Under the pieces are notes generated by a model. The model worked only from the letters and a program-made list of their open reading frames with translations. It ran no database searches and was not told where the DNA came from. From Planctomycetota bacterium (GTDB lineage Bacteria; Planctomycetota; Planctomycetia; Gemmatales; Gemmataceae), in NCBI GenBank assembly GCA_016873095.1, contig VGYC01000075.1, positions 1-32,419 on the forward strand: 32,419 bases of DNA. The letters run 5' to 3'. The translations under genes and the position numbers were made by a program. How positions within the stretch are numbered: the stretch's first letter is position 1; the number at the start of each line of letters is the position of its first letter. Below, piece after piece: positions 1,989 through 11,683 of this stretch.

Positions 1989-3182
1989 TCAGGTTGTCCA
2001 AATGCGCGAGACGCGGCGCCGAAGGCCAACGCTCAAGATCAGGATTCCTATTCCGGCTGCCAGAAACCACAAGTGATGGTTGGCGCTTGTATGCCAAACA
2101 ATGCCGTGGGGCTCGGGAAGATCAAAAGCCGAAAGAGTAAAGGCGTGCTCTGGCGGGGGTGTCGATTCACGCAAATCGAACTCGTGAACAAACTCACGCG
2201 CGCCGATCTTGTGCCCATCGGCGTCTGTCCCTTGCAGCTTCGTCTCGTTGCGCTGGATAATGGGCAGCTGACGGGAACCGGCGCCCACTTCGTTCCGGAC
2301 CCGAATGATGCCACCCGACCCGTCTTTGGAGCGCGCGTGAATCTCCATCTCGAGCAGGCACCAGTAACGCTCCGGGTCCACGATCAACCAGCCAGGATGT
2401 GTCTCGCGTTCCGGGTTCGATTCAATGGCGCAGTAATCAAATTCAACTCGCACCAATTGCCGATTGTCACGCTGGATTGCCGTTTCCCGCTTGACCACAA
2501 GCTCCTTGTTCTTGACGGCGTGGGACAACGTGGTCATGACTAGCATGAAATGCGGAGAGATGCTTTGGAAAATGTCGTCCGCCATCGGCAACTTGTATTC
2601 GTTGAAGCTTGTCTCTGGATGCATGGAGATCTTGTCCAGCGCCCAATCTGGGCGGCTCCTGGCACGCGTCAGCCGGAATGCGTACTTGGCATTCTTTCCC
2701 AGCACCTGGTCGAACTGGATGTTCCTGGTCTTGTCCTCAACGATTTCCTTGTCCGTATAGCTTCGGATGATGACCCCCGCGGTCGTGGTCTGCTTGATTT
2801 CATCCTCCCAGACGGCATCACTCGTGACCAGGTCCTTGTGCGTGATCTTTGCTCGGCCTTTTTTCTTCCCCTGAAGGCTGACGGATCGCTGACGATACTC
2901 CTGCCATTTCAGCGGGGCCTCCGTAAGAAACCGATTTGTCGCAGACGGCGCTTGTCCCTGGAGATTCGAAACGAGAAGGAGAACAAGCAGGGCCGCGCAG
3001 AGGTGCACCACCGCCAGGATGGTGGAAGTCCACGACCAGAACAGCAGCCGAATAGGCTCACCCGCAGGCCGCGACAGGCTTTCGGCCAGTCGGTCTGTTT
3101 CGACGACAGACGCCTGGATGCTCTCTGGCACGGTGACGCTCCTTGTGGAACGCTGCACCTCGCCAATCCCTAGGCCATCCAT
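1989..3182 (-). CDS. Membrane-anchored protein of unknown function (paralog 3 of 3)
   Basis: 397 residues. Residues 1-42 are polar, 43-72 form a hydrophobic segment (LLFWSWTSTILAVVHLCAALLVLLLV), then comes a long exported-looking region and a second hydrophobic helix near the C-terminus (HLWFLAAGIGILILSVGL) followed by arginines. The stretch AFTLSAFDLPEP, with STPPPE before it, matches FRLTAFGLPEP in the next gene, so the two belong to one family. They differ at the N-terminus: this one has an added cytoplasmic segment and two membrane helices. No catalytic motif is visible. It is first in a three-gene leftward run and has a good sigma70-like promoter 28-55 bases upstream. GC is near 50%, unlike the neighbouring PQQ operon. 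Confidence 0.75.
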   Translation of the reverse strand: MDGLGIGEVQRSTRSVTVPESIQASVVETDRLAESLSRPAGEPIRLLFWSWTSTILAVVHLCAALLVLLLVSNLQGQAPSATNRFLTEAPLKWQEYRQRSVSLQGKKKGRAKITHKDLVTSDAVWEDEIKQTTTAGVIIRSYTDKEIVEDKTRNIQFDQVLGKNAKYAFRLTRARSRPDWALDKISMHPETSFNEYKLPMADDIFQSISPHFMLVMTTLSHAVKNKELVVKRETAIQRDNRQLVRVEFDYCAIESNPERETHPGWLIVDPERYWCLLEMEIHARSKDGSGGIIRVRNEVGAGSRQLPIIQRNETKLQGTDADGHKIGAREFVHEFDLRESTPPPEHAFTLSAFDLPEPHGIVWHTSANHHLWFLAAGIGILILSVGLRRRVSRIWTT

Positions 3183-3209: not shown

Positions 3210-3237
3210 ATCGTAACGATGGCATACGGAATGTCAA
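3210..3237 (-). promoter_or_regulatory. Sigma70-like promoter for the paralog array
   Basis: On the minus strand TTGACA (3232-3237) is followed after 16 bases by TACGAT (3210-3215). The predicted transcript would start near 3203, about 20 bases before the ATG at 3182. The -35 matches the consensus fully; the -10 matches at four of six positions. Confidence 0.5.
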
Positions 3238-3262: not shown

Positions 3263-3292
3263 AAAAAAGCTCGGCTTTCTCCCGCCGCCAGC
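3263..3292 (-). terminator. Candidate rho-independent terminator of the PQQ operon
   Basis: On the minus strand, GCTGGC (3292-3287) can pair with GCCGAGC (3275-3269) with one bulged base, and six T residues follow (3268-3263). It lies about 120 bases after the pqqA-like stop and before the promoter of the next leftward genes, as an operon end should. The stem is short and imperfect. Confidence 0.4.
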
Positions 3293-3410
3293 GCGATTGG
3301 CAATTCGTGCGTGGCGATGCATGTGGACGTGCGCTGCTGCGTCCGGCCCGCGAGCTGACGGCGGTCGGCGCGTATGATCTTCAGCGCTGCCGCGGCGAAC
3401 CGCACCAGCG

Positions 3411-3584
3411 TCAGCCCTCCGGACGCTCACCGCCAAGAAAGCTGGCGGCAGGCGCGGCCGGATTCAGATTGCAGGCCGCGGGGGCAATTTCTTGTTGCTT
3501 GCGTACCTCGCCGTCAGTGTTGACGTAGGCCGTCACCTCCATGTTCAGCGTGCTTTCCTGGAAATCCGGCTTTGACCATTGCAT
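3411..3584 (-). CDS. pqqA: PqqA-like precursor peptide with C-terminal extension
   Basis: A 57-codon gene from ATG 3584 to TGA 3411. The peptide begins MQWSKPDFQESTLNMEVTAY. In characterised PqqA peptides (for example Klebsiella MWKKPAF...LEVTLY) the glutamate and tyrosine of E-V-T-x-Y are cross-linked by the radical SAM enzyme PqqE and become PQQ. Here these are E16 and Y20, at the same distance from the N-terminus as the known pair (15 and 19), and the W-x-K-P-x-F start is shared too. An AGGAG sequence (about 3592-3596) stands 8 bases before this ATG and only 3 bases from an out-of-frame ATG, which decides the start. The 37 residues after Y20 are unusual, since PqqA is mostly 22-40 residues long. 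The gene closes an operon with a PQQ dehydrogenase. No pqqB-E gene is in the window. Confidence 0.8.
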   Translation of the reverse strand: MQWSKPDFQESTLNMEVTAYVNTDGEVRKQQEIAPAACNLNPAAPAASFLGGERPEG

Positions 3585-3620
3585 GGCATGCTCTCCTGTG
3601 AAATCGAGGATGACGCGATT

Positions 3621-4469
3621 CTATTCCAGCGTCGTCAGGAACGCAAACAAATCGTGCAGTTCCTTGACGGTCAACTGCTCTGCGACGTTGTCAGGCATGA
3701 GCGACTTTTTGAGGACGCTTGATTCCTCCAGGTCGCGCTTGTCGAATGAATGAAACCGGCCGTTTTCCTCGCGAAGCTGGATGCTGAAGTTGGTCTCATT
3801 GATGCGCAGGCCAATGATCGATAGCCCCTTCTTGGTCACGACCTGGACGGCTTCATACTGAGGGTCGATGTCCTTGGAAGGCTGCAGGATCGACTCCATG
3901 ATGAACTCGGGCGAACGGCGATACGCCAGCTTGTCGAGCGCCGGCCCGATGCGGCCGCCCTCGCCATCAATGGTGTGGCACTTGGCGCACTGGATCTTGC
4001 TCTTGGGATCGAAAAACAGGTGCCGGCCCGCCTTGGGATTGCCGGCGAGATAAGGCTTCCACGTCTCACCCCCTGGAGCGCGCGACAAGCTGCGAATGAA
4101 CAGCACCAGCTTGGCAATCTGGTCCTCCTTGAGCGATTCGCCGAGCTTCTTCATGGTCGTCTTGGGCACGCCTTCGCGGATGACGCGGCTGATGTCGGCG
4201 TCCGTATTGCCGTGCATGAATTTCTTGCGCGTCAGGTCCGGCCCCTTGCCGCCGCGGCCCGCCCCACCGTGACAGCCGCTGCACAGTCCGCGAAAGAGCG
4301 CCTGGCCTTCGGCGAGAGCGGCCTGGTCGGCGGCGGTGGGCGCCGGCTTTTTTTCGGGCTCAGCCTTGTTCTGCGCAATCAATGGTCTCGATCCGAGCGC
4401 AACCATCGTGGCACAAACAAGGACTGCGCTGCCCAGCAACAGCTTGCGATATCGTTGGAGTGGATTCAC
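3621..4469 (-). CDS. Di-heme cytochrome c, XoxG/MxaG-like role, with PVC-type heme domain
   Basis: 282 residues. A signal-anchor (residues 8-32) is followed by a first cytochrome c domain with CSGCH (C63, C66, H67; M106 is a possible axial ligand). A second domain carries CAKCH (C161, C164, H165) and then the long C-terminal region typical of the putative heme-binding domain of Planctomycetes/Verrucomicrobia proteins (IGPALDKLAYRRSPEFIMESIL, then IIGLRINET). It is predicted to be periplasmic and to carry electrons. The start is GTG at 4469, overlapping the preceding stop by 4 bases (GTGA), which implies translational coupling to the binding-protein gene. Its place after a quinoprotein dehydrogenase and MxaJ-like protein suggests that it accepts electrons from PQQ, as XoxG/MxaG do in methylotrophs. 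That role is inferred from context; it is not a close sequence match to XoxG that I can see. Confidence 0.85.
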   Translation of the reverse strand: MNPLQRYRKLLLGSAVLVCATMVALGSRPLIAQNKAEPEKKPAPTAADQAALAEGQALFRGLCSGCHGGAGRGGKGPDLTRKKFMHGNTDADISRVIREGVPKTTMKKLGESLKEDQIAKLVLFIRSLSRAPGGETWKPYLAGNPKAGRHLFFDPKSKIQCAKCHTIDGEGGRIGPALDKLAYRRSPEFIMESILQPSKDIDPQYEAVQVVTKKGLSIIGLRINETNFSIQLREENGRFHSFDKRDLEESSVLKKSLMPDNVAEQLTVKELHDLFAFLTTLE

Positions 4470-6832
4470 CTTGGTAGTTTCTCATTGGTGTGGGATGCAC
4501 GATCCGGAACGTGCCAGCGGGCGAATACGTCGGCCAATTCGGCGGACTGAGCGAGTTCCGCAAAGGCCCGGTCAATGGCGTCGCGCAAGTCGCCGTCAGC
4601 CTTGCGAACGACCGCGCAGATTGGAAACCGATCCGCGCTGGCAATACCGACGAACCTGAGCTTGCCTGGCCATTTCTGCTGAGCGAGCCACTGGCTGCGC
4701 GTCGAGATCACGCAGCCGGCCTTGGCCTTGCCGTTGGCCACCGCTTCCAGGACTGCATCCAGGCTGGGATAGGGCCGCAGCATCGCTTTTTCTGGAAGAC
4801 CGCGCACGGCAGCGCCCTCTTCGATGGCGACTGGCTGATCCCAAGAGGTGGCAGGTGGCCTGTCACCCTCGCGCACCACGAGGCAGTACGTTGCCTTGTA
4901 ATAGGGCATTGAGTAGAGCACGCGTTTGGCGAAACGATCATCGGGCATGACGCCGAGCATCACGTCGCAGAGCTTGCGGGTCGCCAGCCTCGATGGATAA
5001 GAAGCGTGCGAGGAATAGCCCCAGTAGATACGCAGCGACACGCCAAGCTTCTTGGCGAGCAAGCCTGCGATCTCGTAATCGAGGCCGGCCGGTCTAGGAT
5101 GCGCGGTCGAGAACGGCAAATTGCGCTGATCCAGGCCGACCACCAGGACGCCCGCCGAGCGAACCCGCTCCAGCCCGCTGTAGGGATTCTTCGAACCCTG
5201 TACGCGTTGCATCTGCGGCTCGAGGCCGCGCTCAATGGCCGGATGCTTGATGACGCGCGCTTCTGCGTCCTTGCTACCACCCTTGTCTTTCTTGTCGTCC
5301 GGAAATGGCGCGAAGTAGGGCACATGGTACCTGGCCAGCGTCTTGGCGACGGTGCCATCCTTGATGAGCTTTGTGAGCGCAGCATCGACGTGCTTTTTCA
5401 GTTCCTCGTCGCCATGCCGCATGGCGATGGCGATGTTCCAGTGGTCTTCCGGCACGTAGCCGGCGGCGAGCTTCACGGCAAGATCGGGTGAGGTGTGCAA
5501 GGTCCAGCCGACGTTGGCCCAGAGGTAACCATAATCGATGCCGCCGTCGTGCATGGCCTTCAAGACGGCAAGCTGATTGCGGTACAGGCTGCGCAGGTAG
5601 CCGCGCTGCCGCAGCCGATAGTCGGCGACCGAGCCGGCCTCGGCGCCCAGGCGCCGTGCCTTCTCACCCTTCAAATCGGAGAGGGATTTTATCGGCGGCC
5701 CGTCCTTGCGCGTCACCAGCAAGTAGCCGGTGCCATAGTATGGCCGCGAGAACAGCAACTTGCCGCCAAGATCGTCGTCGTCCTCCACGGCGTTGTCGTC
5801 GATGGGAGTGCCGAAGGCCAGGTCGCTGGCGCCGTCGAGCAGCTTGCCGATGGCCGTGGCACGATGGATGTCAAGCCAGTCGATGCGCAGCTTCACGCCC
5901 ATCTCCCTGGCGAGGGCGCGGAGCAACTCGACGTCGAAGCCGGCACGCTCCGTCTTGGCGCTTGAATACGGCAGGTTGGCCGGATCCAGGCTGACCGCCA
6001 TCACGCCGCGCTCCTGGATTCGCTTCCAGGTGTTGAAAGAAGTCTTGCGGCGTGCGTTGCTCGTGAACGGCGGACGATAGGCCACGCCTTGCGCGGCATA
6101 GACCTTGCGAATCTGCCCTGACTCGGACAATTCCGCGAGAGCCTTGTTCAGGTCCGTGAGCAGGTCAACGCTCTTGATCCGCACGGCCAAGGCCATGTTC
6201 CAGTGCTCGCGCGGCACATAGTCCTTCACAAGCTGCAAGCCAAGCTTCGGATGCTGATGCAGTTGCCAGGAGGCGAAGTCAGCATCGACAAACGCTGCCG
6301 CCAGCTTGTGCTTGTGAAACTCGTGCAGCAACTGTTCGCGCGACTTGAACTGCCCGACCTTGTGTTCGGTCTCTGAAATGGCCACGGTGCCGGCGACGAT
6401 GCCGACGCGCTGACCGCGCAGGTCGGCCAGCGAACGGATGTCCTTGGCGTCACGCGCGATCACCAGTCCGAACTGGCTGCCGGCGTAGGGGACGCTCCAG
6501 GCGATGTCCTTGGCGCCGTCGGGATCGTGCGGATGGCCAAGGATCACGTCGCACCGTCCCTCGCGCAGACAGCGCCGGGAGCATGCCGGGCTGGCACACC
6601 AGTGGACCTCGAGCTTGCGCCCCAGGCTGCGCGCCAGCAGTTCCGCGATGGCGAGGTCCACGCCCTGCGGCTTGCCATCCGCCGTCTTGCCGGTCCGCGG
6701 CATGGCGTGCGGCTCGGCACAGACGACGAGGGGCTTGGGGCTTTCCGTGGCAACGTCGGCCCTCGATACCGAACCGCAAGTGGCCAACAGCGACAATGCC
6801 AATGGAGTCAGCGATTTTAAACTCGATTCCAT
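4466..6832 (-). CDS. Triple periplasmic binding-protein fusion, MxaJ/XoxJ-like
   Basis: 788 residues from ATG 6832 (a GTG four codons upstream is also in frame). After a signal peptide come three family-3 solute-binding-type domains at about 33-252, 275-506 and 557-777. Each starts with a strand and a D/E-P/Q-x-N/A-L/M-P motif: VCAEPHAMP, VSLDPANLPYS and VGLDQRNLPFS. Each has the typical G-x-D-x-E/A-x-x-x-x-L helix and ends with a D-H/E-H-W-N-x-A-x-A segment or an equivalent. Domains 2 and 3 resemble the quinoprotein dehydrogenase-associated binding proteins (MxaJ/XoxJ), which have one domain. A charged linker (DDKKDKGGSKDAEAR) separates domains 2 and 3. There are no permease or ATPase genes nearby, so transport is unlikely; partnership with the dehydrogenase or cytochrome is the better guess. 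It overlaps the cytochrome gene by 4 bases. Confidence 0.85.
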   Translation of the reverse strand: MESSLKSLTPLALSLLATCGSVSRADVATESPKPLVVCAEPHAMPRTGKTADGKPQGVDLAIAELLARSLGRKLEVHWCASPACSRRCLREGRCDVILGHPHDPDGAKDIAWSVPYAGSQFGLVIARDAKDIRSLADLRGQRVGIVAGTVAISETEHKVGQFKSREQLLHEFHKHKLAAAFVDADFASWQLHQHPKLGLQLVKDYVPREHWNMALAVRIKSVDLLTDLNKALAELSESGQIRKVYAAQGVAYRPPFTSNARRKTSFNTWKRIQERGVMAVSLDPANLPYSSAKTERAGFDVELLRALAREMGVKLRIDWLDIHRATAIGKLLDGASDLAFGTPIDDNAVEDDDDLGGKLLFSRPYYGTGYLLVTRKDGPPIKSLSDLKGEKARRLGAEAGSVADYRLRQRGYLRSLYRNQLAVLKAMHDGGIDYGYLWANVGWTLHTSPDLAVKLAAGYVPEDHWNIAIAMRHGDEELKKHVDAALTKLIKDGTVAKTLARYHVPYFAPFPDDKKDKGGSKDAEARVIKHPAIERGLEPQMQRVQGSKNPYSGLERVRSAGVLVVGLDQRNLPFSTAHPRPAGLDYEIAGLLAKKLGVSLRIYWGYSSHASYPSRLATRKLCDVMLGVMPDDRFAKRVLYSMPYYKATYCLVVREGDRPPATSWDQPVAIEEGAAVRGLPEKAMLRPYPSLDAVLEAVANGKAKAGCVISTRSQWLAQQKWPGKLRFVGIASADRFPICAVVRKADGDLRDAIDRAFAELAQSAELADVFARWHVPDRASHTNEKLPR

Positions 6833-6861
6833 GGGGGATCTCACAAACCGCCAGGTTCGAT

Positions 6862-7338
6862 CTAGTTATTGCCCTCGGGACGGAGCTTGCTGCGTAGTTC
6901 AGCAATCGTTCCTGACCTCCAAATCGAGCGCCGGTTTGGCGAAGCATGTTCAGCAAATATGGACTTCAGAAGTCCTAGGAGTTTGTCATGCACGGGATCG
7001 AAAAAACCTCCACGTCTTTCTCGTGGACCGGTCACAATCCAACCAGAGCATGTGAAACCAACCAACACGCTTACCGTGCCGCGGCTTCCTGACGTTTGAA
7101 AGAGGGCGGTATCACGAGGCAGGCAGCGCTTGACGCAGAAGTACCATGAGTCGGGATCAAGCAATAATCCCTTCAACGACGTCAGTTGTTCGGTGTCCAG
7201 TTCCCTGGCAGCAGTCAAAACTTTCGGGCGCGTCCATGTTCCATTTGGATCAAGTATCTGGCAACATCCACCGGTTGAAGCTTCGATCGCTGCGCTCGTT
7301 GAGGGCTTCAAAATGGAATCGATAGCGCTGGTTTTCAT
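6862..7338 (-). CDS. Small cytosolic protein of unknown function inside the PQQ operon
   Basis: 158 residues from ATG 7338, 26 bases after the dehydrogenase stop and 29 bases before the next start, so it is spaced like an operon member. No signal peptide or membrane segment is present. The core (LKGLLLDPDSWYFCVKRC, then a strand-rich stretch ending GGFFDPVHDKLLGLLKSIF) resembles small conserved planctomycete proteins with a pattern 'LL-D-x-x-S/T-Y ... K-x-C ... FDP-x-x-x-x-L-x-x-x-x-K-x-x-F', which have no assigned function. That resemblance is from memory and could be superficial. GC is about 50% in the lines counted, against about 65% in the dehydrogenase, so it may be a recent arrival. Its upstream frame stays open into the dehydrogenase, but that part is only a shadow. 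Confidence 0.65.
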   Translation of the reverse strand: MKTSAIDSILKPSTSAAIEASTGGCCQILDPNGTWTRPKVLTAARELDTEQLTSLKGLLLDPDSWYFCVKRCLPRDTALFQTSGSRGTVSVLVGFTCSGWIVTGPRERRGGFFDPVHDKLLGLLKSIFAEHASPNRRSIWRSGTIAELRSKLRPEGNN

Positions 7339-7364
7339 AGCATTGGTTTCTGTCCGAACTTGTG

Positions 7365-9251
7365 CTATTCTTCCTTCGGCAGCGCAAACACAAATGTCGT
7401 ATTCCCGCGGCGGGCATTGCGCAGCCATGGCGCTCCATCGCCCGCAAAGCCGGCGGTCCAGCCGCCCCAGCCGACGCAGACGGCGATGTATTGGCGGCCA
7501 TCCAGCACGTAGGTCACCGGCGAGGCGTGATGGCCGGAGCCGCACTGGAAGGTCCAGAGGATCTTGCCGGTGTCGGCGTCGTAGGCGGTGAAGAATCCTT
7601 CGGCATCGCCGGTGAAGGCGAGGCCGCCGCCGGTCGCCAGCACGCCGGCGACCATCGGCGAACGCGTGGCCACTTCCCACTTGGACTTGCCCGTCTTCAC
7701 GTCGATGGCCTTGAATGATCCGGACGCCTGGTTGTCGATCAGCGTCAAGGCGCTGCCCCAGTAGGGCTGGCCCTTGATGAAGAACGCCTTGCCGGAGGTG
7801 AACTTGGCGCAGTTGTTGATGACCGGCACATAGGCGAGGCCCGTGCCCGGATGATAGGCCATCGGGTTCCATTCCTTGCCGCCGGCGGCGCCGGGACAGA
7901 CGCGGACGCCCTTCTCCGTGGGCAATGCCTTGGGGTTGATGAACGGCCGGCCGGACTTCGGATCGAGACCGTCCACTCCCTTGGTGCGGTCGGTCCAGGT
8001 GATCTCGCAGAACGGTTTGCCGTAGATGAACTCGCCGTTCTCGCGATTGAGGCAATAGAAGTAGCCGTTGCGATGCGCTTGCACCAGCGCCTTGATCTTC
8101 TTGCCGCCATTTCCGCCTCCCTCTCCTTCGGGAGAGGGTTGGGGTGAGGGGATATCGACCAGCACCGGCTCGTTGACGCCGTCGTAATCCCAGACGTCGT
8201 GCGGGCTGGCCTGGAAATGCCACTTGTATTTGCCGTCGTCCGGGTTCAGGGCGACGATAGAACAGGTGTAGAGGTTGTCCCCCTTGCGCACCTCGCCGTT
8301 GAAATCCGGAGATGGATTGCCGACGCCCCAGTAGAGCGTGTTCAGCTCCGGATCGTAGGTGCCGGTGACCCAGGCCGAGCCGCCGCCGGTCAGCCACGAC
8401 TTGCCTTCCCAGGTCTTAAGGGCCTTCTTGGCATGCGCCTCCTTGTCATCGGGGCCGGGGACGGTGTAGAAGCGCCACAGCCGTTTGCCGGACTTGGCGT
8501 CGTAGGCGTCGATGAAGCCGCGGATGCCGTACTCCGCGCCGCTGATGCCCATGATGACCTTGCCCTTGACGACCAGCGGCGCCACCGTGGCGCTGTAGGC
8601 CAGCTTGTAGATGTCCTTGACCTCCTTGCCGTCGTCGCCGGTGATGGTGATGGGTCGGTCCCAGATTTCCTCGCCGGTATTGCGGTCGAGGCAGACCAGG
8701 TGCGCGTCCAGCGTGGTCATGTACAGGCGGTCGCCCCAGCACGCCAGGCCCCTGTTGACAGCGTCGCAGCATAGCGCCAGATTCTCCGGTAGCGCCTTCT
8801 GATAATGCCAGATCTGCGAGCCAGTCTTGCAATCAACAGCGTAGGCATGGTTCCAGGGCGTCGAGATGTACATGATGCCGTCGATGACGAGCGGCGTGCA
8901 CTCGAAGCCGTCCAGCACGCCGGTCTGAAAGGTCCATACAGGGATGAGCCGTTTGACGTTCTTCTTGTTGATCTGGTCGAGCGGGCTGAAGCGCTGGGCG
9001 TCATAGGTCCGGCCATACATGAGCCAGTTGGCGTTGTTCTTGCCGGCATTCAGTAGCGTCTTGTCATCCACGCTGCCGACCGGCTCGGCAGCCTGCGCCG
9101 CCGCTGCTTTCCCGGTTTCCTGCCTGGCAACGACCGGCTCGTCGGCCCAAGAAGCCGGTTCGACGGGCTGCGAGTAGCCGCCAAAAAACGCGAGCATCCC
9201 GGCGGCGATGCAGACTGCGACAGCGCGGAACGTGATTCTGGAGAGGTTCAT
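7365..9251 (-). CDS. PQQ-dependent alcohol dehydrogenase with lanthanide-type active site
   Basis: 628 residues from ATG 9251, chosen because a signal peptide follows it directly (MNLSRITFRAVAVCIAAGML) and GGAG lies about 10 bases upstream. It is a quinoprotein eight-blade propeller. Visible key residues are the vicinal cysteines C161-C162 (ALCCDAVNRG), E240 (SGAEYGIRG) and N312 (GVGNPSPDF) as metal ligands, catalytic base D355, and D357 two residues later (HDVWDYDGVNE). In known enzymes the second aspartate marks lanthanide-dependent forms (XoxF, PedH); calcium MxaF has alanine there. GDNLYTCSIVALNPDDG is closer to the PedH/ExaA group than to XoxF. It should oxidise an alcohol in the periplasm and pass electrons to the operon's cytochrome. 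A repeat-derived insert (PSPQPSPEGEGGGNGG, residues 369-383) follows the active-site segment. Confidence 0.92.
   Translation of the reverse strand: MNLSRITFRAVAVCIAAGMLAFFGGYSQPVEPASWADEPVVARQETGKAAAAQAAEPVGSVDDKTLLNAGKNNANWLMYGRTYDAQRFSPLDQINKKNVKRLIPVWTFQTGVLDGFECTPLVIDGIMYISTPWNHAYAVDCKTGSQIWHYQKALPENLALCCDAVNRGLACWGDRLYMTTLDAHLVCLDRNTGEEIWDRPITITGDDGKEVKDIYKLAYSATVAPLVVKGKVIMGISGAEYGIRGFIDAYDAKSGKRLWRFYTVPGPDDKEAHAKKALKTWEGKSWLTGGGSAWVTGTYDPELNTLYWGVGNPSPDFNGEVRKGDNLYTCSIVALNPDDGKYKWHFQASPHDVWDYDGVNEPVLVDIPSPQPSPEGEGGGNGGKKIKALVQAHRNGYFYCLNRENGEFIYGKPFCEITWTDRTKGVDGLDPKSGRPFINPKALPTEKGVRVCPGAAGGKEWNPMAYHPGTGLAYVPVINNCAKFTSGKAFFIKGQPYWGSALTLIDNQASGSFKAIDVKTGKSKWEVATRSPMVAGVLATGGGLAFTGDAEGFFTAYDADTGKILWTFQCGSGHHASPVTYVLDGRQYIAVCVGWGGWTAGFAGDGAPWLRNARRGNTTFVFALPKEE
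8117..8151. repeat. REP-like palindromic element inserted in frame in the dehydrogenase gene
   Basis: CCCTCTCC (8119-8126), a TTCG loop, and GGAGAGGG (8131-8138) form a perfect 8-base stem, followed by GTTGGGGTGAGGGG. On the coding strand it is translated as SPQPSPEGEGG, a peptide seen where this dispersed 'CCCTCACCCCAACCCTCTCC' type repeat enters genes in diverse bacteria. Only this copy is present in the window. Confidence 0.75.
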
Positions 9252-9297
9252 GGCTGCGGTCTCCGTGTGGATACGGAAATGCAAATGGGACTCGGAT

Positions 9298-9325
9298 ACT
9301 GTAACAAGTGCTGAAGTGCAGTCAA
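9298..9325 (-). promoter_or_regulatory. Sigma70-like promoter of the PQQ operon
   Basis: On the minus strand TTGACT (9320-9325) is followed after 16 bases by TACAGT (9298-9303). A transcript would start near 9291, giving a leader of about 40 bases before the dehydrogenase ATG. It lies in the 272-base divergent region shared with the sialidase-subtilase gene. Confidence 0.5.
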
Positions 9326-9523: not shown

Positions 9524-11683
9524 ATGAAGAGCGTTCGCTGGCTGTCTGGTTGCTGGATCGTCCGGTGCCTGCTCGTTGGCGGAATCGGTTGTCTGCCGGA
9601 TGTCACTGCGGAAGAAAAGCCCGGTGCCCGTCCAATCCGAGTCATCAGGCCGCGCGTGCTGGCCGGTGAGGATGTACCGGCGCTCCGCATTCCCCTGGGA
9701 TTGCCCAATGACTACAAGCCGTGGATCGTCCGACTGCTCAACGGCGATTTGCTGATCGTTGCTTTCTGTTTCGGTGGAACACCGAGTAACGAGCTTCCCA
9801 AGGGCCAGCCCTATCGCGAGCGAGCTGTGTTCTGGCGGTCCAAGGACGATGGCAGGACCTGGGGGCCGCGCGAGGAGCGGGCTGATATCCGTGGCCGGGA
9901 ATTCGCGCTCACTTGCCTCGCCGACGGCACACTGATCATGCCTTGCCATTTTCTGGCAAACGACGCGGCCAACAGGACTGGCCATACCTACAGCAAGATC
10001 TTTCGTTCAGTTGATGAGGGCAAGACCTGGTCAGAGTTGCGCGTCGGCCCGGCACAGTTTCCCGCGAAGGCCAGCACGGCAACCGACTGGAATGTGGTCG
10101 AATTGCCCGACCCTCGCCGTCCCGGCAAGACGGTCGTGCAACTTGGGGTCAGTATGCAGAACGGCGGGACAGCTGCAGCGAAACACGTGTTCTTGTGGCG
10201 ATCCACGGACAGCGGCGTTACCTGGGACAAGTCGTTGATTCCCGATACGGACAGGTGGAGCGACGTGGATGGCTTCTTTTCACAATCGACAACCTATCGG
10301 GCCCGGTCGGGAGTCTTGCTGCATCCGGTGCGCGTCGATGCAAGTGGCCCGCACTGGAAGCTGCCGTCGACCAAGAGTGTCGAGGACCGTTCGGGCGATC
10401 AGGACGACCGCACCATGCTCTGGAAATCGACAGACGATGGCAAGACCTGGCGTCGGCACAAGAATGATGGTCGGTTTGGGACCTATGGCGAAATGTATCC
10501 ACGTTTCTTGAGATTGAACGACAAGCGACTGCTGCTCACCTTCACGGTTCGCAGCAATTCCATGGACAAGCAGCCACTCGGCTTGCGCGCCATCATCAGC
10601 CTCGATGACGGCCAGACCTGGGACTTCACCCAGGACCGCATCGTCATTGCCGATCAGAACCACGGCGCCAGCGGCGGCGGCTTCGGCAACACGATTCAGC
10701 TCCCGGACGGGACATTGGTGTCCTGCTACAGTTATCGCGGCAGAGACAACAAGACGCATGTCGAGGCGGTTCGCTGGAAACTGCCACCGATGCCTGCCGA
10801 GCCGACGTCGTTCAAGCATGCGCGCGTGACGGCTGCCTGGGCCGCATATCAAGGGAAACTGACATTCGGTAAGGGTCAAACGCTGGCGTTGCTCGATGAC
10901 GGCTGCAATCTGTCGATGCCGGAATGGTCGCAGCCAGCGGGAGGCGTGCCAAAAGTGCTCGCTGCGTACGACAGCGTGGATGGCGACAACGATCCGAAAC
11001 ACGAGGGGCGAGGCTATCATGGCTCGACCATCGGCATTCCTTCATCGTTGAACTACCAGGGAAAGCTAGGTGTCGCCTTCAATAATCAGCTGGCCGTGGT
11101 TCGCGCGCTGGAATGCTGCCACTGCAAGGTGGCGGACAGCAAGACCCTGGCCGCCGGACTGCAGTGGGTCATCGACAACCATGCGAAATACCGCATCACG
11201 ACCGTCAACCTGGCGCCGGTGGACGATCTGGAGCACGCCAAACCAGTTGCGACGGCAATCGATGCCAAGCTCAAGCGCCTGCGCGAGCTGGGAATCTGGG
11301 TGAGCGCGCCGTCAGGCAACCACAACTTTACCAGGGGGATCTCCTGGCCGGCGTGCCAGACCGATTGCTTTGCCATCGGTGCCGTGAAGCCTGGAAAGGA
11401 CGAGATCTTTCTGGATCGGAACACCAAGATCGATCTTGTCGTACCCGCCGCCGCCACATCCTCCTCCAACGCGATCGTCTGCGGATCGGTGATGCTGCTG
11501 CGCGAAGCGATCGTCAACACCGGCTACGACTGGAAGAAGGACGGCCCCAATCTTCCCGAAGCAATGATGAAGATCCTGAAGCGTACCGGAGTAGCTGTGC
11601 ACGATCCCGCGACCAGGCTTACTTTCCGAAGGCTCGATCTGAAGGCAGCGCTCGATGAAGTGTTTCGGCCGGCGAAGCGTTGA
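9524..11683 (+). CDS. Secreted sialidase-like and subtilase-like fusion protein
   Basis: 719 residues from ATG 9524, which has AAAGGAG 6-7 bases upstream and starts a signal peptide; the longer frame from 9443 is unlikely. Residues about 50-420 are a BNR/sialidase-type propeller with five Asp boxes (S-x-D-x-G-x-T-W): SKDDGRTW 106, SVDEGKTW 162, STDSGVTW 227, STDDGKTW 302, SLDDGQTW 359. Residues about 450-670 resemble a subtilisin-like (S8) protease: ALLDDG (D458/459), GYHGSTIG (H499), SAPSGNHN with the oxyanion asparagine about 599, and ATSSSNAIVCG (S646) in place of G-T-S-M-A. All triad positions seem filled, but the motifs around His and Ser are non-standard, so activity is uncertain. Many planctomycete Asp-box proteins are not true sialidases. 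It may act on sulfated or host glycoproteins outside the cell. Confidence 0.8.
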   Translation: MKSVRWLSGCWIVRCLLVGGIGCLPDVTAEEKPGARPIRVIRPRVLAGEDVPALRIPLGLPNDYKPWIVRLLNGDLLIVAFCFGGTPSNELPKGQPYRERAVFWRSKDDGRTWGPREERADIRGREFALTCLADGTLIMPCHFLANDAANRTGHTYSKIFRSVDEGKTWSELRVGPAQFPAKASTATDWNVVELPDPRRPGKTVVQLGVSMQNGGTAAAKHVFLWRSTDSGVTWDKSLIPDTDRWSDVDGFFSQSTTYRARSGVLLHPVRVDASGPHWKLPSTKSVEDRSGDQDDRTMLWKSTDDGKTWRRHKNDGRFGTYGEMYPRFLRLNDKRLLLTFTVRSNSMDKQPLGLRAIISLDDGQTWDFTQDRIVIADQNHGASGGGFGNTIQLPDGTLVSCYSYRGRDNKTHVEAVRWKLPPMPAEPTSFKHARVTAAWAAYQGKLTFGKGQTLALLDDGCNLSMPEWSQPAGGVPKVLAAYDSVDGDNDPKHEGRGYHGSTIGIPSSLNYQGKLGVAFNNQLAVVRALECCHCKVADSKTLAAGLQWVIDNHAKYRITTVNLAPVDDLEHAKPVATAIDAKLKRLRELGIWVSAPSGNHNFTRGISWPACQTDCFAIGAVKPGKDEIFLDRNTKIDLVVPAAATSSSNAIVCGSVMLLREAIVNTGYDWKKDGPNLPEAMMKILKRTGVAVHDPATRLTFRRLDLKAALDEVFRPAKR

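What the first reader, a model, noticed from the sequence alone, without database searches (positions are those of the whole stretch)
3263..9325. Complete quinoprotein operon: PQQ dehydrogenase, orf158, triple XoxJ-like protein, cytochrome c and pqqA
Five leftward genes are separated by 26, 29, -4 and 36 bases, with a promoter before the first and a possible terminator after the last. In methylotrophs xoxF/mxaF sits with J (binding protein) and G (cytochrome). Here the same three roles appear in a planctomycete setting with a different cytochrome type, a tripled J domain, and the PQQ precursor gene at the end. That makes one transcript for enzyme, electron acceptor and cofactor precursor, which I do not know as a described arrangement.
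Basis: partly seen in the sequence, partly recalled or inferred. Interest (0 to 1): 0.85.

Follow-up and report, generated by a model that had tools for sequence, protein, structure and literature searches.

The report
Planctomycete alcohol-oxidation operon with cofactor-precursor gene
A group of uncultured planctomycete bacteria carries a compact set of genes for what is probably a rare-earth-dependent alcohol-oxidising enzyme, its helper and electron-carrier proteins and, where the cell makes the cofactor itself, the gene for the cofactor's precursor; the kind of gene cluster is known, but this version has a tripled helper protein and an unusual order and history.

Summary
Five leftward genes lie at the stated places with gaps of 26, 29, -4 and 36 bases: PQQ alcohol dehydrogenase (lanthanide-type Asp pair), orf158, a protein of three J-like domains, a two-haem cytochrome c, and pqqA (over Pfam and NCBIfam cut-offs). 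Of 397 genomes drawn from the class, ten (own included) have this dehydrogenase at 79% identity or more; seven show DH-J-cytochrome on one contig. Four of the ten have PqqC and PqqE, and in all four pqqA directly follows the cytochrome gene. In this genome pqqBCDE sits on another contig. The other six show no PqqC, PqqE or over-cut-off PqqA. A TTGAC-N16-TAnnnT site precedes the dehydrogenase in 6 of 9 loci, window included (pattern chosen after looking). No terminator was called, and orf158 looks like an unrelated insertion. The arrangement is not new in kind: Phyllobacterium zundukense has XoxF5-cytochrome-J-CXXCW-pqqA-pqqB-pqqC in a row. What is new here: the planctomycete version, the fused triple J, the diheme acceptor, pqqA staying when pqqBCDE are apart, and apparent PQQ non-producers keeping the cluster. 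Transcription, metal and substrate are untested.

The parts
9298..9325 (-). Promoter-like site TTGACT-N16-TACAGT upstream of the dehydrogenase
   Evidence: TTGAC-N16-TAnnnT is present within 250 bases upstream of DH in 6 of 9 loci, window included, against 0 (990 times) or 1 (10 times) of 9 in 1000 Markov-1 resamples (the pattern was chosen)
7365..9251 (-). PQQ-dependent alcohol dehydrogenase, signal-peptide-like start, 628 aa, with adjacent Cys-Cys and WDYDGVNE Asp pair (lanthanide type)
   Evidence: the only one of 37 matches in the genome that is over the TIGR03075 cut-off
8130..8150 (-). REP-like sequence (my label) inside the DH gene; part of 12 extra residues just after the metal-site aspartates
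   Evidence: the 12 residues face a gap in all 11 other dehydrogenases aligned
6862..7338 (-). orf158, family unknown; probably an insertion in the DH-J junction, not part of the conserved module
4466..6832 (-). J-like protein with three tandem periplasmic-binding domains (788 aa)
6065..6736 (-). J domain 1
5315..6031 (-). J domain 2
4508..5176 (-). J domain 3
3621..4469 (-). Two-haem cytochrome c (Cytochrome_CBB3 domain plus TIGR02603 domain) with signal-peptide-like start, probable electron acceptor
   Evidence: both CxxCH motifs invariant in 10 of 10 sequences aligned, window included
3411..3584 (-). pqqA, 57 aa, with EVTAY crosslink motif and a C-terminal tail
3210..3237 (-). Promoter-like site of the next gene (TTGACA-N16-TACGAT): probable downstream boundary

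Best explanation
This is the planctomycete form of the lanthanide-type quinoprotein alcohol dehydrogenase cluster. The exported dehydrogenase oxidises an alcohol (substrate unknown) in the periplasm with PQQ and, probably, a lanthanide. The triple J protein acts like XoxJ or MxaJ, helping to load or activate the enzyme or to dock it to its cytochrome. The two-haem cytochrome takes the electrons. pqqA supplies the peptide that PqqE, PqqD, PqqB and PqqC, encoded elsewhere, turn into PQQ. The ancestral cluster in the PQQ-making lineages was probably DH-J-cytochrome-pqqABCDE; here pqqBCDE are apart while pqqA stayed, so precursor supply could still follow demand for the enzyme. orf158 is a later insertion. 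Shown: gene content, order, conservation, motif presence, recurrence of the promoter-like site. Inferred: export, co-transcription, metal, substrate, J function, direction of the rearrangement.
For: DH-J-cytochrome on one contig in 7 of 10 genomes with this dehydrogenase. pqqA 13-61 bases after the cytochrome gene in 4 of 4 genomes of the ten that have PqqC and PqqE (G000, G028, G061, G366), including G061, where cytochrome-pqqA-pqqB lies on a contig other than DH-J and other than pqqCDE. Whole line DH-insert-J-cytochrome-pqqA-pqqB-orf-pqqC-pqqD-pqqE in G028. WDYDGVNE aligns with WDFDGVNE of the best PDB match (6zcv), where three other quinohemoprotein ADHs have WD[FY]T; the Asp pair is in 10 of 10 clade members. 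Recurring promoter-like site. In Methylorubrum, loss of xoxG or xoxJ equals loss of xoxF1 and xoxF2 in methanol-lanthanum medium (PMC7391723, passages).
Against: The J domains score better against amino-acid-binding proteins than against XoxJ, and TIGR03871 is below its cut-off. Six of ten genomes with the dehydrogenase show no PqqC (E 1e-10), no PqqE (E 1e-80) and no PqqA over the cut-off, so pqqA linkage is not general. No expression data. The source genomes are fragmented assemblies (three relatives are named MAGs), so breakpoints could in part be assembly or binning errors. The DH of this genome carries 12 extra residues near the active site, so its activity is not certain. The literature seen does not place planctomycetes among methanol oxidisers: in PMC10994693 the Planctomycetota MAGs are named as non-methylotrophic (passages).
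Confidence: 0.75

Rival explanations
1. The triple J protein is a periplasmic receptor that captures a small molecule (PQQ, a peptide or an amino acid) for uptake or sensing, not an enzyme helper; the cluster is a scavenging unit, which would suit relatives without PQQ synthesis.
For: Best sequence and fold matches are amino-acid-binding proteins, among them the SBD1-SBD2 tandem of GlnPQ. Six of ten genomes with the dehydrogenase show no PqqC, PqqE or over-cut-off PqqA.
Against: The Arg of the EERKK segment of the amino-acid binders (recalled as the carboxylate clamp) is not matched by Arg in the profile alignments of domains 1 and 2, and in domain 3 only an Arg one place away is present. No ABC permease or ATPase family was matched by the window genes scanned. 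J genes next to quinoprotein dehydrogenases are common in the annotated records opened.
Confidence: 0.12
2. Genes in a row without functional unity: pqqA sits here by chance after a rearrangement and is made from another promoter or not used.
For: pqqBCDE are elsewhere; five relatives read have no pqqA after the cytochrome gene, though these show no PqqC or PqqE either.
Against: pqqA directly follows the cytochrome gene in 4 of 4 PQQ makers of the ten, from two families, in one of them apart from the dehydrogenase. It is the only PqqA match found in this genome at E up to 10.
Confidence: 0.08
3. The dehydrogenase is a calcium-type ethanol dehydrogenase or an inactive paralogue.
For: Overall similarity also to quinohemoprotein ADHs, recalled as calcium-type; in-frame REP-like addition near the metal site.
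Against: Second Asp of the lanthanide type in 10 of 10 clade members; the addition replaces a short variable stretch in the alignment; it is the only enzyme over the family cut-off in a genome that keeps the PQQ genes.
Confidence: 0.1

Closest known systems
xoxF-cytochrome-J-pqqABC cluster of Phyllobacterium zundukense (NZ_CP104969.1)
   Same: Dehydrogenase, cytochrome, J-type substrate-binding protein and pqqA-pqqB-pqqC collinear on one strand; lanthanide-dependent dehydrogenase as annotated
   Different: Order F-G-J; single short J; another cytochrome family; a CXXCW protein between; pqqBC follow pqqA, here they do not
ped / exaF-type clusters (Azospirillum thermophilum; Pseudomonas review PMC12997753, passages)
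   Same: PQQ dehydrogenase, cytochrome, J homologue (PedG in Pseudomonas), pqqABCDE in the cluster; in P. aeruginosa the pqq operon lies inside the ped cluster
   Different: Cytochrome c550 PedF, regulator and SoxYZ-like genes present; single J
xoxF-xoxJ-xoxG:J operon of Methylacidiphilum (PMC6688271 and PMC5623727, passages)
   Same: Order dehydrogenase-J-cytochrome; more than one J domain per operon; PVC superphylum (recalled)
   Different: Second J is fused to the cytochrome, not to J; pqqABCDE in a separate cluster
mxaFJGI of Methylocystis and DH-J-cytochrome of Mesorhizobium
   Same: Order dehydrogenase-J-cytochrome
   Different: Single J; no pqqA in the stretch read; small MDH subunit present in Methylocystis

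Membership tests
PQQ-dependent methanol/ethanol dehydrogenase (TIGR03075) | Score over curated cut-off | tested here: met
   634 bits, cut-off 480
Lanthanide-type quinoprotein ADH | Extra Asp at the metal site (DxD) | tested here: met
   WDYDGVNE aligned to 6zcv WDFDGVNE; three other quinohemoprotein ADHs have Thr at that place; 10 of 10 clade members. That 6zcv is lanthanide-dependent PedH and that this Asp marks lanthanide enzymes is recalled.
Lanthanide-type quinoprotein ADH | Lanthanide-dependent activity | not testable with these tools
   needs enzyme assay
XoxF/MxaF clade | Placement with XoxF/MxaF in a tree | tested here: not met
   Two XoxF, one MxaF and a Mesorhizobium DH form a 100/100 clade; the planctomycete ten form their own 100/99 clade apart from it (21 sequences, some long branches)
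PedH/ExaF clade | Placement with ped-type enzymes | tested here: inconclusive
   Best PDB matches are 6zcv and 6zcw, but the tree joins the planctomycete clade with other lineages on unresolved forks
MoxJ/XoxJ family (TIGR03871) | Score over curated cut-off | tested here: not met
   186 bits, cut-off 212; still the best NCBIfam family, three stretches
MoxJ/XoxJ family | Gene next to a quinoprotein dehydrogenase and its cytochrome | tested here: met
   7 of 10 genomes on one contig
MoxJ/XoxJ family | Closest fold among solved structures | tested here: inconclusive
   top rows are amino-acid-binding proteins, mostly over domain 1; a family that is not listed is not excluded
Cytochrome cL / MoxG (TIGR03872) or PedF (TIGR04494) | Score over curated cut-off | tested here: not met
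   43 of 147.8 bits; 28 of 122 bits
TIGR02603 haem-binding domain | Score over curated cut-off | tested here: met
   107 bits, cut-off 68
PqqA (TIGR02107, PF08042) | Score over cut-offs and Glu-x3-Tyr motif | tested here: met
   24.3 of 20 and 21.7 of 21.1 bits; E and Y invariant in 4 of 4
Single operon | One transcript | not testable with these tools
   no RNA data; gaps, overlap and promoter-like site are consistent with it

The most novel reading that the evidence does not exclude
In these planctomycetes the precursor peptide gene, not the maturation enzymes, is what selection holds in the dehydrogenase transcript: pqqA is kept behind the cytochrome gene as a one-to-one supply of cofactor precursor while pqqBCDE disperse. 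Relatives that lost PQQ synthesis keep the same cluster and use imported PQQ, loaded by a tripled J protein that works as a relay of three binding domains.
Probability: 0.15. Interest if true: 0.7.

Novelty: new variant of a known kind. Interest (0 to 1): 0.5.

Why it matters
It suggests that lanthanide-type alcohol oxidation reaches several planctomycete families. My library searches with planctomycete plus xoxF and PQQ, pqqA and alcohol dehydrogenase, lanthanide and quinoprotein, pqqA alone, or xoxJ listed no title on such a system; I saw listings, and passages of a few of those papers, so mentions in the body of others are not excluded. The function of J proteins is open, and a natural triple J with a dedicated diheme acceptor is a new test case. 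The split pqq genes allow a test of whether precursor supply is matched to enzyme demand. Six genomes with the enzyme but without PqqC and PqqE matches predict dependence on PQQ from neighbours.

Tried and rejected
XoxF or MxaF as the name of the dehydrogenase: rejected on the tree and on PDB scores. orf158 as a part of the system: rejected, because the slot holds different things in relatives (PIN-domain gene in G061; SEC-C/HINT/Colicin D-type gene with immunity gene in G028; gaps of about 36 to 305 bases with no gene assigned in G188, G227, G191, G197, G371). Its homologues (11 of 397 class genomes, own included) gave no telling neighbour in the four flanking ORFs scanned. A terminator after pqqA: not confirmed. 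A second pqqA in this genome: not found at E up to 10. The first search for PqqA (PF08042 at E 0.001) found nothing, not even the one in the window, and was discarded as insensitive.

J outside the class: 1 of 392 genomes drawn from the phylum matched at 1e-40, the window's own, so no wider spread was seen in that sample. The named scan found only three planctomycete MAGs with the two peptide patterns it used; the f3 and f13 homologues were not among them, so it is far from exhaustive. Structure of J: mean pLDDT 74, pTM 0.37; the arrangement of the three domains is not to be trusted, and no entry titled XoxJ or MxaJ is among the 50 fold rows shown, which excludes nothing. PqqE was counted at E 1e-80, which misses the PqqE fragment at the contig end in G042 (seen); G042 has a different dehydrogenase (38% by tblastn, 43-44% in other alignments) and is not among the ten. 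One query (named pqqA_g028) was translated in the wrong frame; its rows were not used, and a repeat with all four PqqA peptides in frame found no pqqA in 11 loci without one (best E 0.6). The promoter pattern and the pattern were both written after looking at the sites, and the start codons upstream of which I looked are partly GTG starts of my choice, so their chance figures are too favourable. Two papers on alcohol-cycling soils and sediments were looked at for planctomycetes (passages): one lists planctomycete putative isopropanol dehydrogenases, the other treats its Planctomycetota MAGs as non-methylotrophic.
Full report
Observation. The window is a whole contig (C75, 32,419 bases) of an 8.36 Mb genome in 548 contigs, 95.5% complete. 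The dehydrogenase scores 634 bits to TIGR03075; the long protein has three SBP_bac_3 stretches, with TIGR03871 (MoxJ_2) its best NCBIfam family, though below the cut-off; the cytochrome has two haem motifs and a TIGR02603 domain; the small gene passes both PqqA cut-offs. orf158 matches no family. The dehydrogenase is the only one of 37 matches in the genome over the TIGR03075 cut-off. pqqB, pqqC, pqqD and pqqE stand together on contig C77, each over its NCBIfam cut-off, with no pqqA found in the first 12 kb of that contig by motif or by tblastn.

Relatives. Within the family, 4 of 95 genomes have the J protein at E 1e-20, own included (in G031 only as a fragment at a contig end), and 4 of 95 a dehydrogenase at E 1e-90 (one of these, G042, is a distant one). 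In the class, 11 of 397 genomes drawn match the dehydrogenase at 1e-130: ten, the window's own included, at 79% identity or more, and one (G241) at 44%. Around those ten I read the DNA. The order DH-J-cytochrome stands on one contig in seven: G000, G028, G188, G227, G191, G197, G371. In G061, DH-J and cytochrome-pqqA-pqqB are on two different contigs and pqqCDE on a third. In G230 the DH ends at the end of one contig, and J then cytochrome begin another, J being matched from base 97 on. In G366 the DH ends 44 bases from the end of a contig, and cytochrome-pqqA-pqqB-C-D-E begin another, so J is not seen.

pqqA. PqqE (E 1e-80) and PqqC (E 1e-10) each pass their cut-offs in the same 4 of 13 genomes examined: G000, G028, G061, G366. 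PqqA passes in these four and in G042; PqqA, PqqB and, in G000, PqqD were also scored over cut-off one by one. In all four, pqqA begins 13 to 61 bases after the stop of the cytochrome gene (36, 13, 61 and 48). pqqB follows in G028, G061 and G366, but not in the window. The six other genomes with the dehydrogenase (G188, G191, G197, G227, G230, G371; completeness 83 to 99%, contamination 1 to 10%) show no PqqC or PqqE at those thresholds and only PqqA matches below the cut-off (best E 0.137). In the five whose downstream DNA I translated no pqqA follows the cytochrome gene, and in-frame PqqA queries found none in their loci. The plain reading is that the DH-J-cytochrome module is conserved, that pqq genes are joined to it behind the cytochrome gene in PQQ makers, and that the joined set was broken at different places in G000 (between pqqA and pqqB) and G061 (between J and cytochrome, and between pqqB and pqqC). 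The direction of these events is inferred from gene order, not from a dated tree.

Dehydrogenase. The best solved relatives are 6zcv and 6zcw (420 and 418 bits), then quinohemoprotein ADHs (395 to 372), then chains recalled or titled as XoxF (4mae 354; 6dam and 6oc5 334) and MDH large subunits (318 and below), with other quinoprotein ethanol dehydrogenases among them. In the alignments the window has WDYDGVNE where 6zcv has WDFDGVNE and three quinohemoprotein ADHs have WD[FY]T. Ten of ten clade members have it. A tree of 21 sequences puts the ten in one clade (100/99), apart from the XoxF/MxaF clade (100/100); its deeper place is not resolved and several branches are long. The window's gene alone has 12 added residues, read from a REP-like sequence just after this site.

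J. The three domains are 29 to 32% identical to each other, with alignment scores 23 to 41 standard deviations above 100 shuffles. The predicted model shows three two-lobed binding folds, at moderate confidence. Profiles of each domain find amino-acid-binding proteins first; XoxJ (6onp) is matched by all three at lower rank (E 8e-7, 3e-11, 3e-8), MxaJ (9ism_B) by domain 3 (E 4e-7), and 5sv6, which PMC9728263 gives as MxaJ, by all three. The Arg of the EERKK segment in the amino-acid binders is not matched in domains 1 and 2 and is one place off in domain 3, which fits a domain that no longer binds an amino acid in the usual way; that this Arg is the ligand clamp is recalled. A J-like role is therefore likely by gene context and best family, but the formal family cut-off fails.

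Cytochrome. Both CxxCH motifs and two Met (M106, M258) are invariant in the 10 of 10 sequences aligned, window included. Scores to MoxG and PedF are far below cut-off.

Operon evidence. The gap lengths and the 4-base J-cytochrome overlap favour one transcript. TTGAC-N16-TAnnnT stands within 250 bases upstream of the DH in 6 of 9 loci (window, G061, G028, G227, G230, G191; G197 was left out, its DH being cut at the contig start), 74 to 203 bases before the starts that I chose. Of the other three, one (G188) has only 83 bases of upstream DNA and two (G366, G371) have looser forms at the same spacing. In 1000 Markov-1 resamples of the nine stretches, 990 gave none and 10 gave one; the pattern was written after seeing the sites, so this figure flatters. 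A related motif, TTCTTGAC-N15-GTTAC, occurs at this site and once more in the window, before the next gene at 3240-3213, which marks a likely new unit after pqqA. No terminator was called in between.

Precedent. Phyllobacterium zundukense has XoxF5, cytochrome, J, a CXXCW protein, pqqA, pqqB and pqqC in a row on one strand. Azospirillum thermophilum has pedF, J, two accessory genes, dehydrogenase, a response regulator, a CXXCW protein and pqqABCDE. Of the nine plasmid records I opened, out of 314 with a match, two therefore have pqqA in line; seven do not within the stretch read, one of these (Streptomyces) having no annotation there. The Pseudomonas ped review (passages) reports the pqq operon inside the ped cluster in P. 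aeruginosa and a proposed role of J homologues in inserting PQQ and metal. Methylacidiphilum has xoxF-xoxJ-xoxG:J with pqqABCDE apart (passages). So enzyme, acceptor, J and precursor in one cluster is a known kind.

Verdict. The anatomy is real and conserved, and it is a new variant of a known kind. What would interest a specialist is the triple J with its own diheme acceptor, pqqA staying behind the cytochrome gene where the rest of the pqq set is apart, and relatives that seem to keep the enzyme without making PQQ. Function, metal and transcript remain to be tested.

Noticed in passing
L025 7179-8442; L024 10684-11500; window 6862-7338: The DH-J junction holds a different foreign cassette in each of the three f1 genomes where it is seen: SEC-C/HINT/Colicin D-type gene with colicin immunity gene (G028), a PIN-domain gene (G061), orf158 (window). 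No gene was assigned there in the five f3/f13 genomes read.
   Followed up: partly
L024 about 11506-11440 and 10525-10480: In G061 the start of the J gene is duplicated on both sides of the PIN-domain cassette, as if the insert came with a partial duplication.
   Followed up: no
window 8130-8150: REP-like sequence (my label) read in frame inside the dehydrogenase gene, adding 12 residues beside the metal site; a similar sequence lies between cytochrome and pqqA in G061 (L073 near 5600-5640).
   Followed up: partly
window 9328-9301 and 3240-3213: TTCTTGAC-N15-GTTAC occurs exactly twice in the window, before the DH operon and before the next gene (2 matches; 1 of 100 shuffles had as many, two mismatches allowed; pattern written after seeing the sites).
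   Followed up: partly
G188, G191, G197, G227, G230, G371: Genomes with this dehydrogenase, J and cytochrome but no PqqC, PqqE or over-cut-off PqqA match: possible PQQ auxotrophs.
   Followed up: partly
L051 1-2634 (G042): Another genome of the same family has a PqqE fragment, pqqA and a distant PQQ dehydrogenase in a row, with pqqA before the dehydrogenase.
   Followed up: no
window 9524-11683: Divergent neighbour gene with BNR repeats and a weak peptidase S8 match in one 719-aa frame.
   Followed up: no
window 1989-3131: Next gene downstream, 380 aa, no Pfam or NCBIfam match.
   Followed up: no
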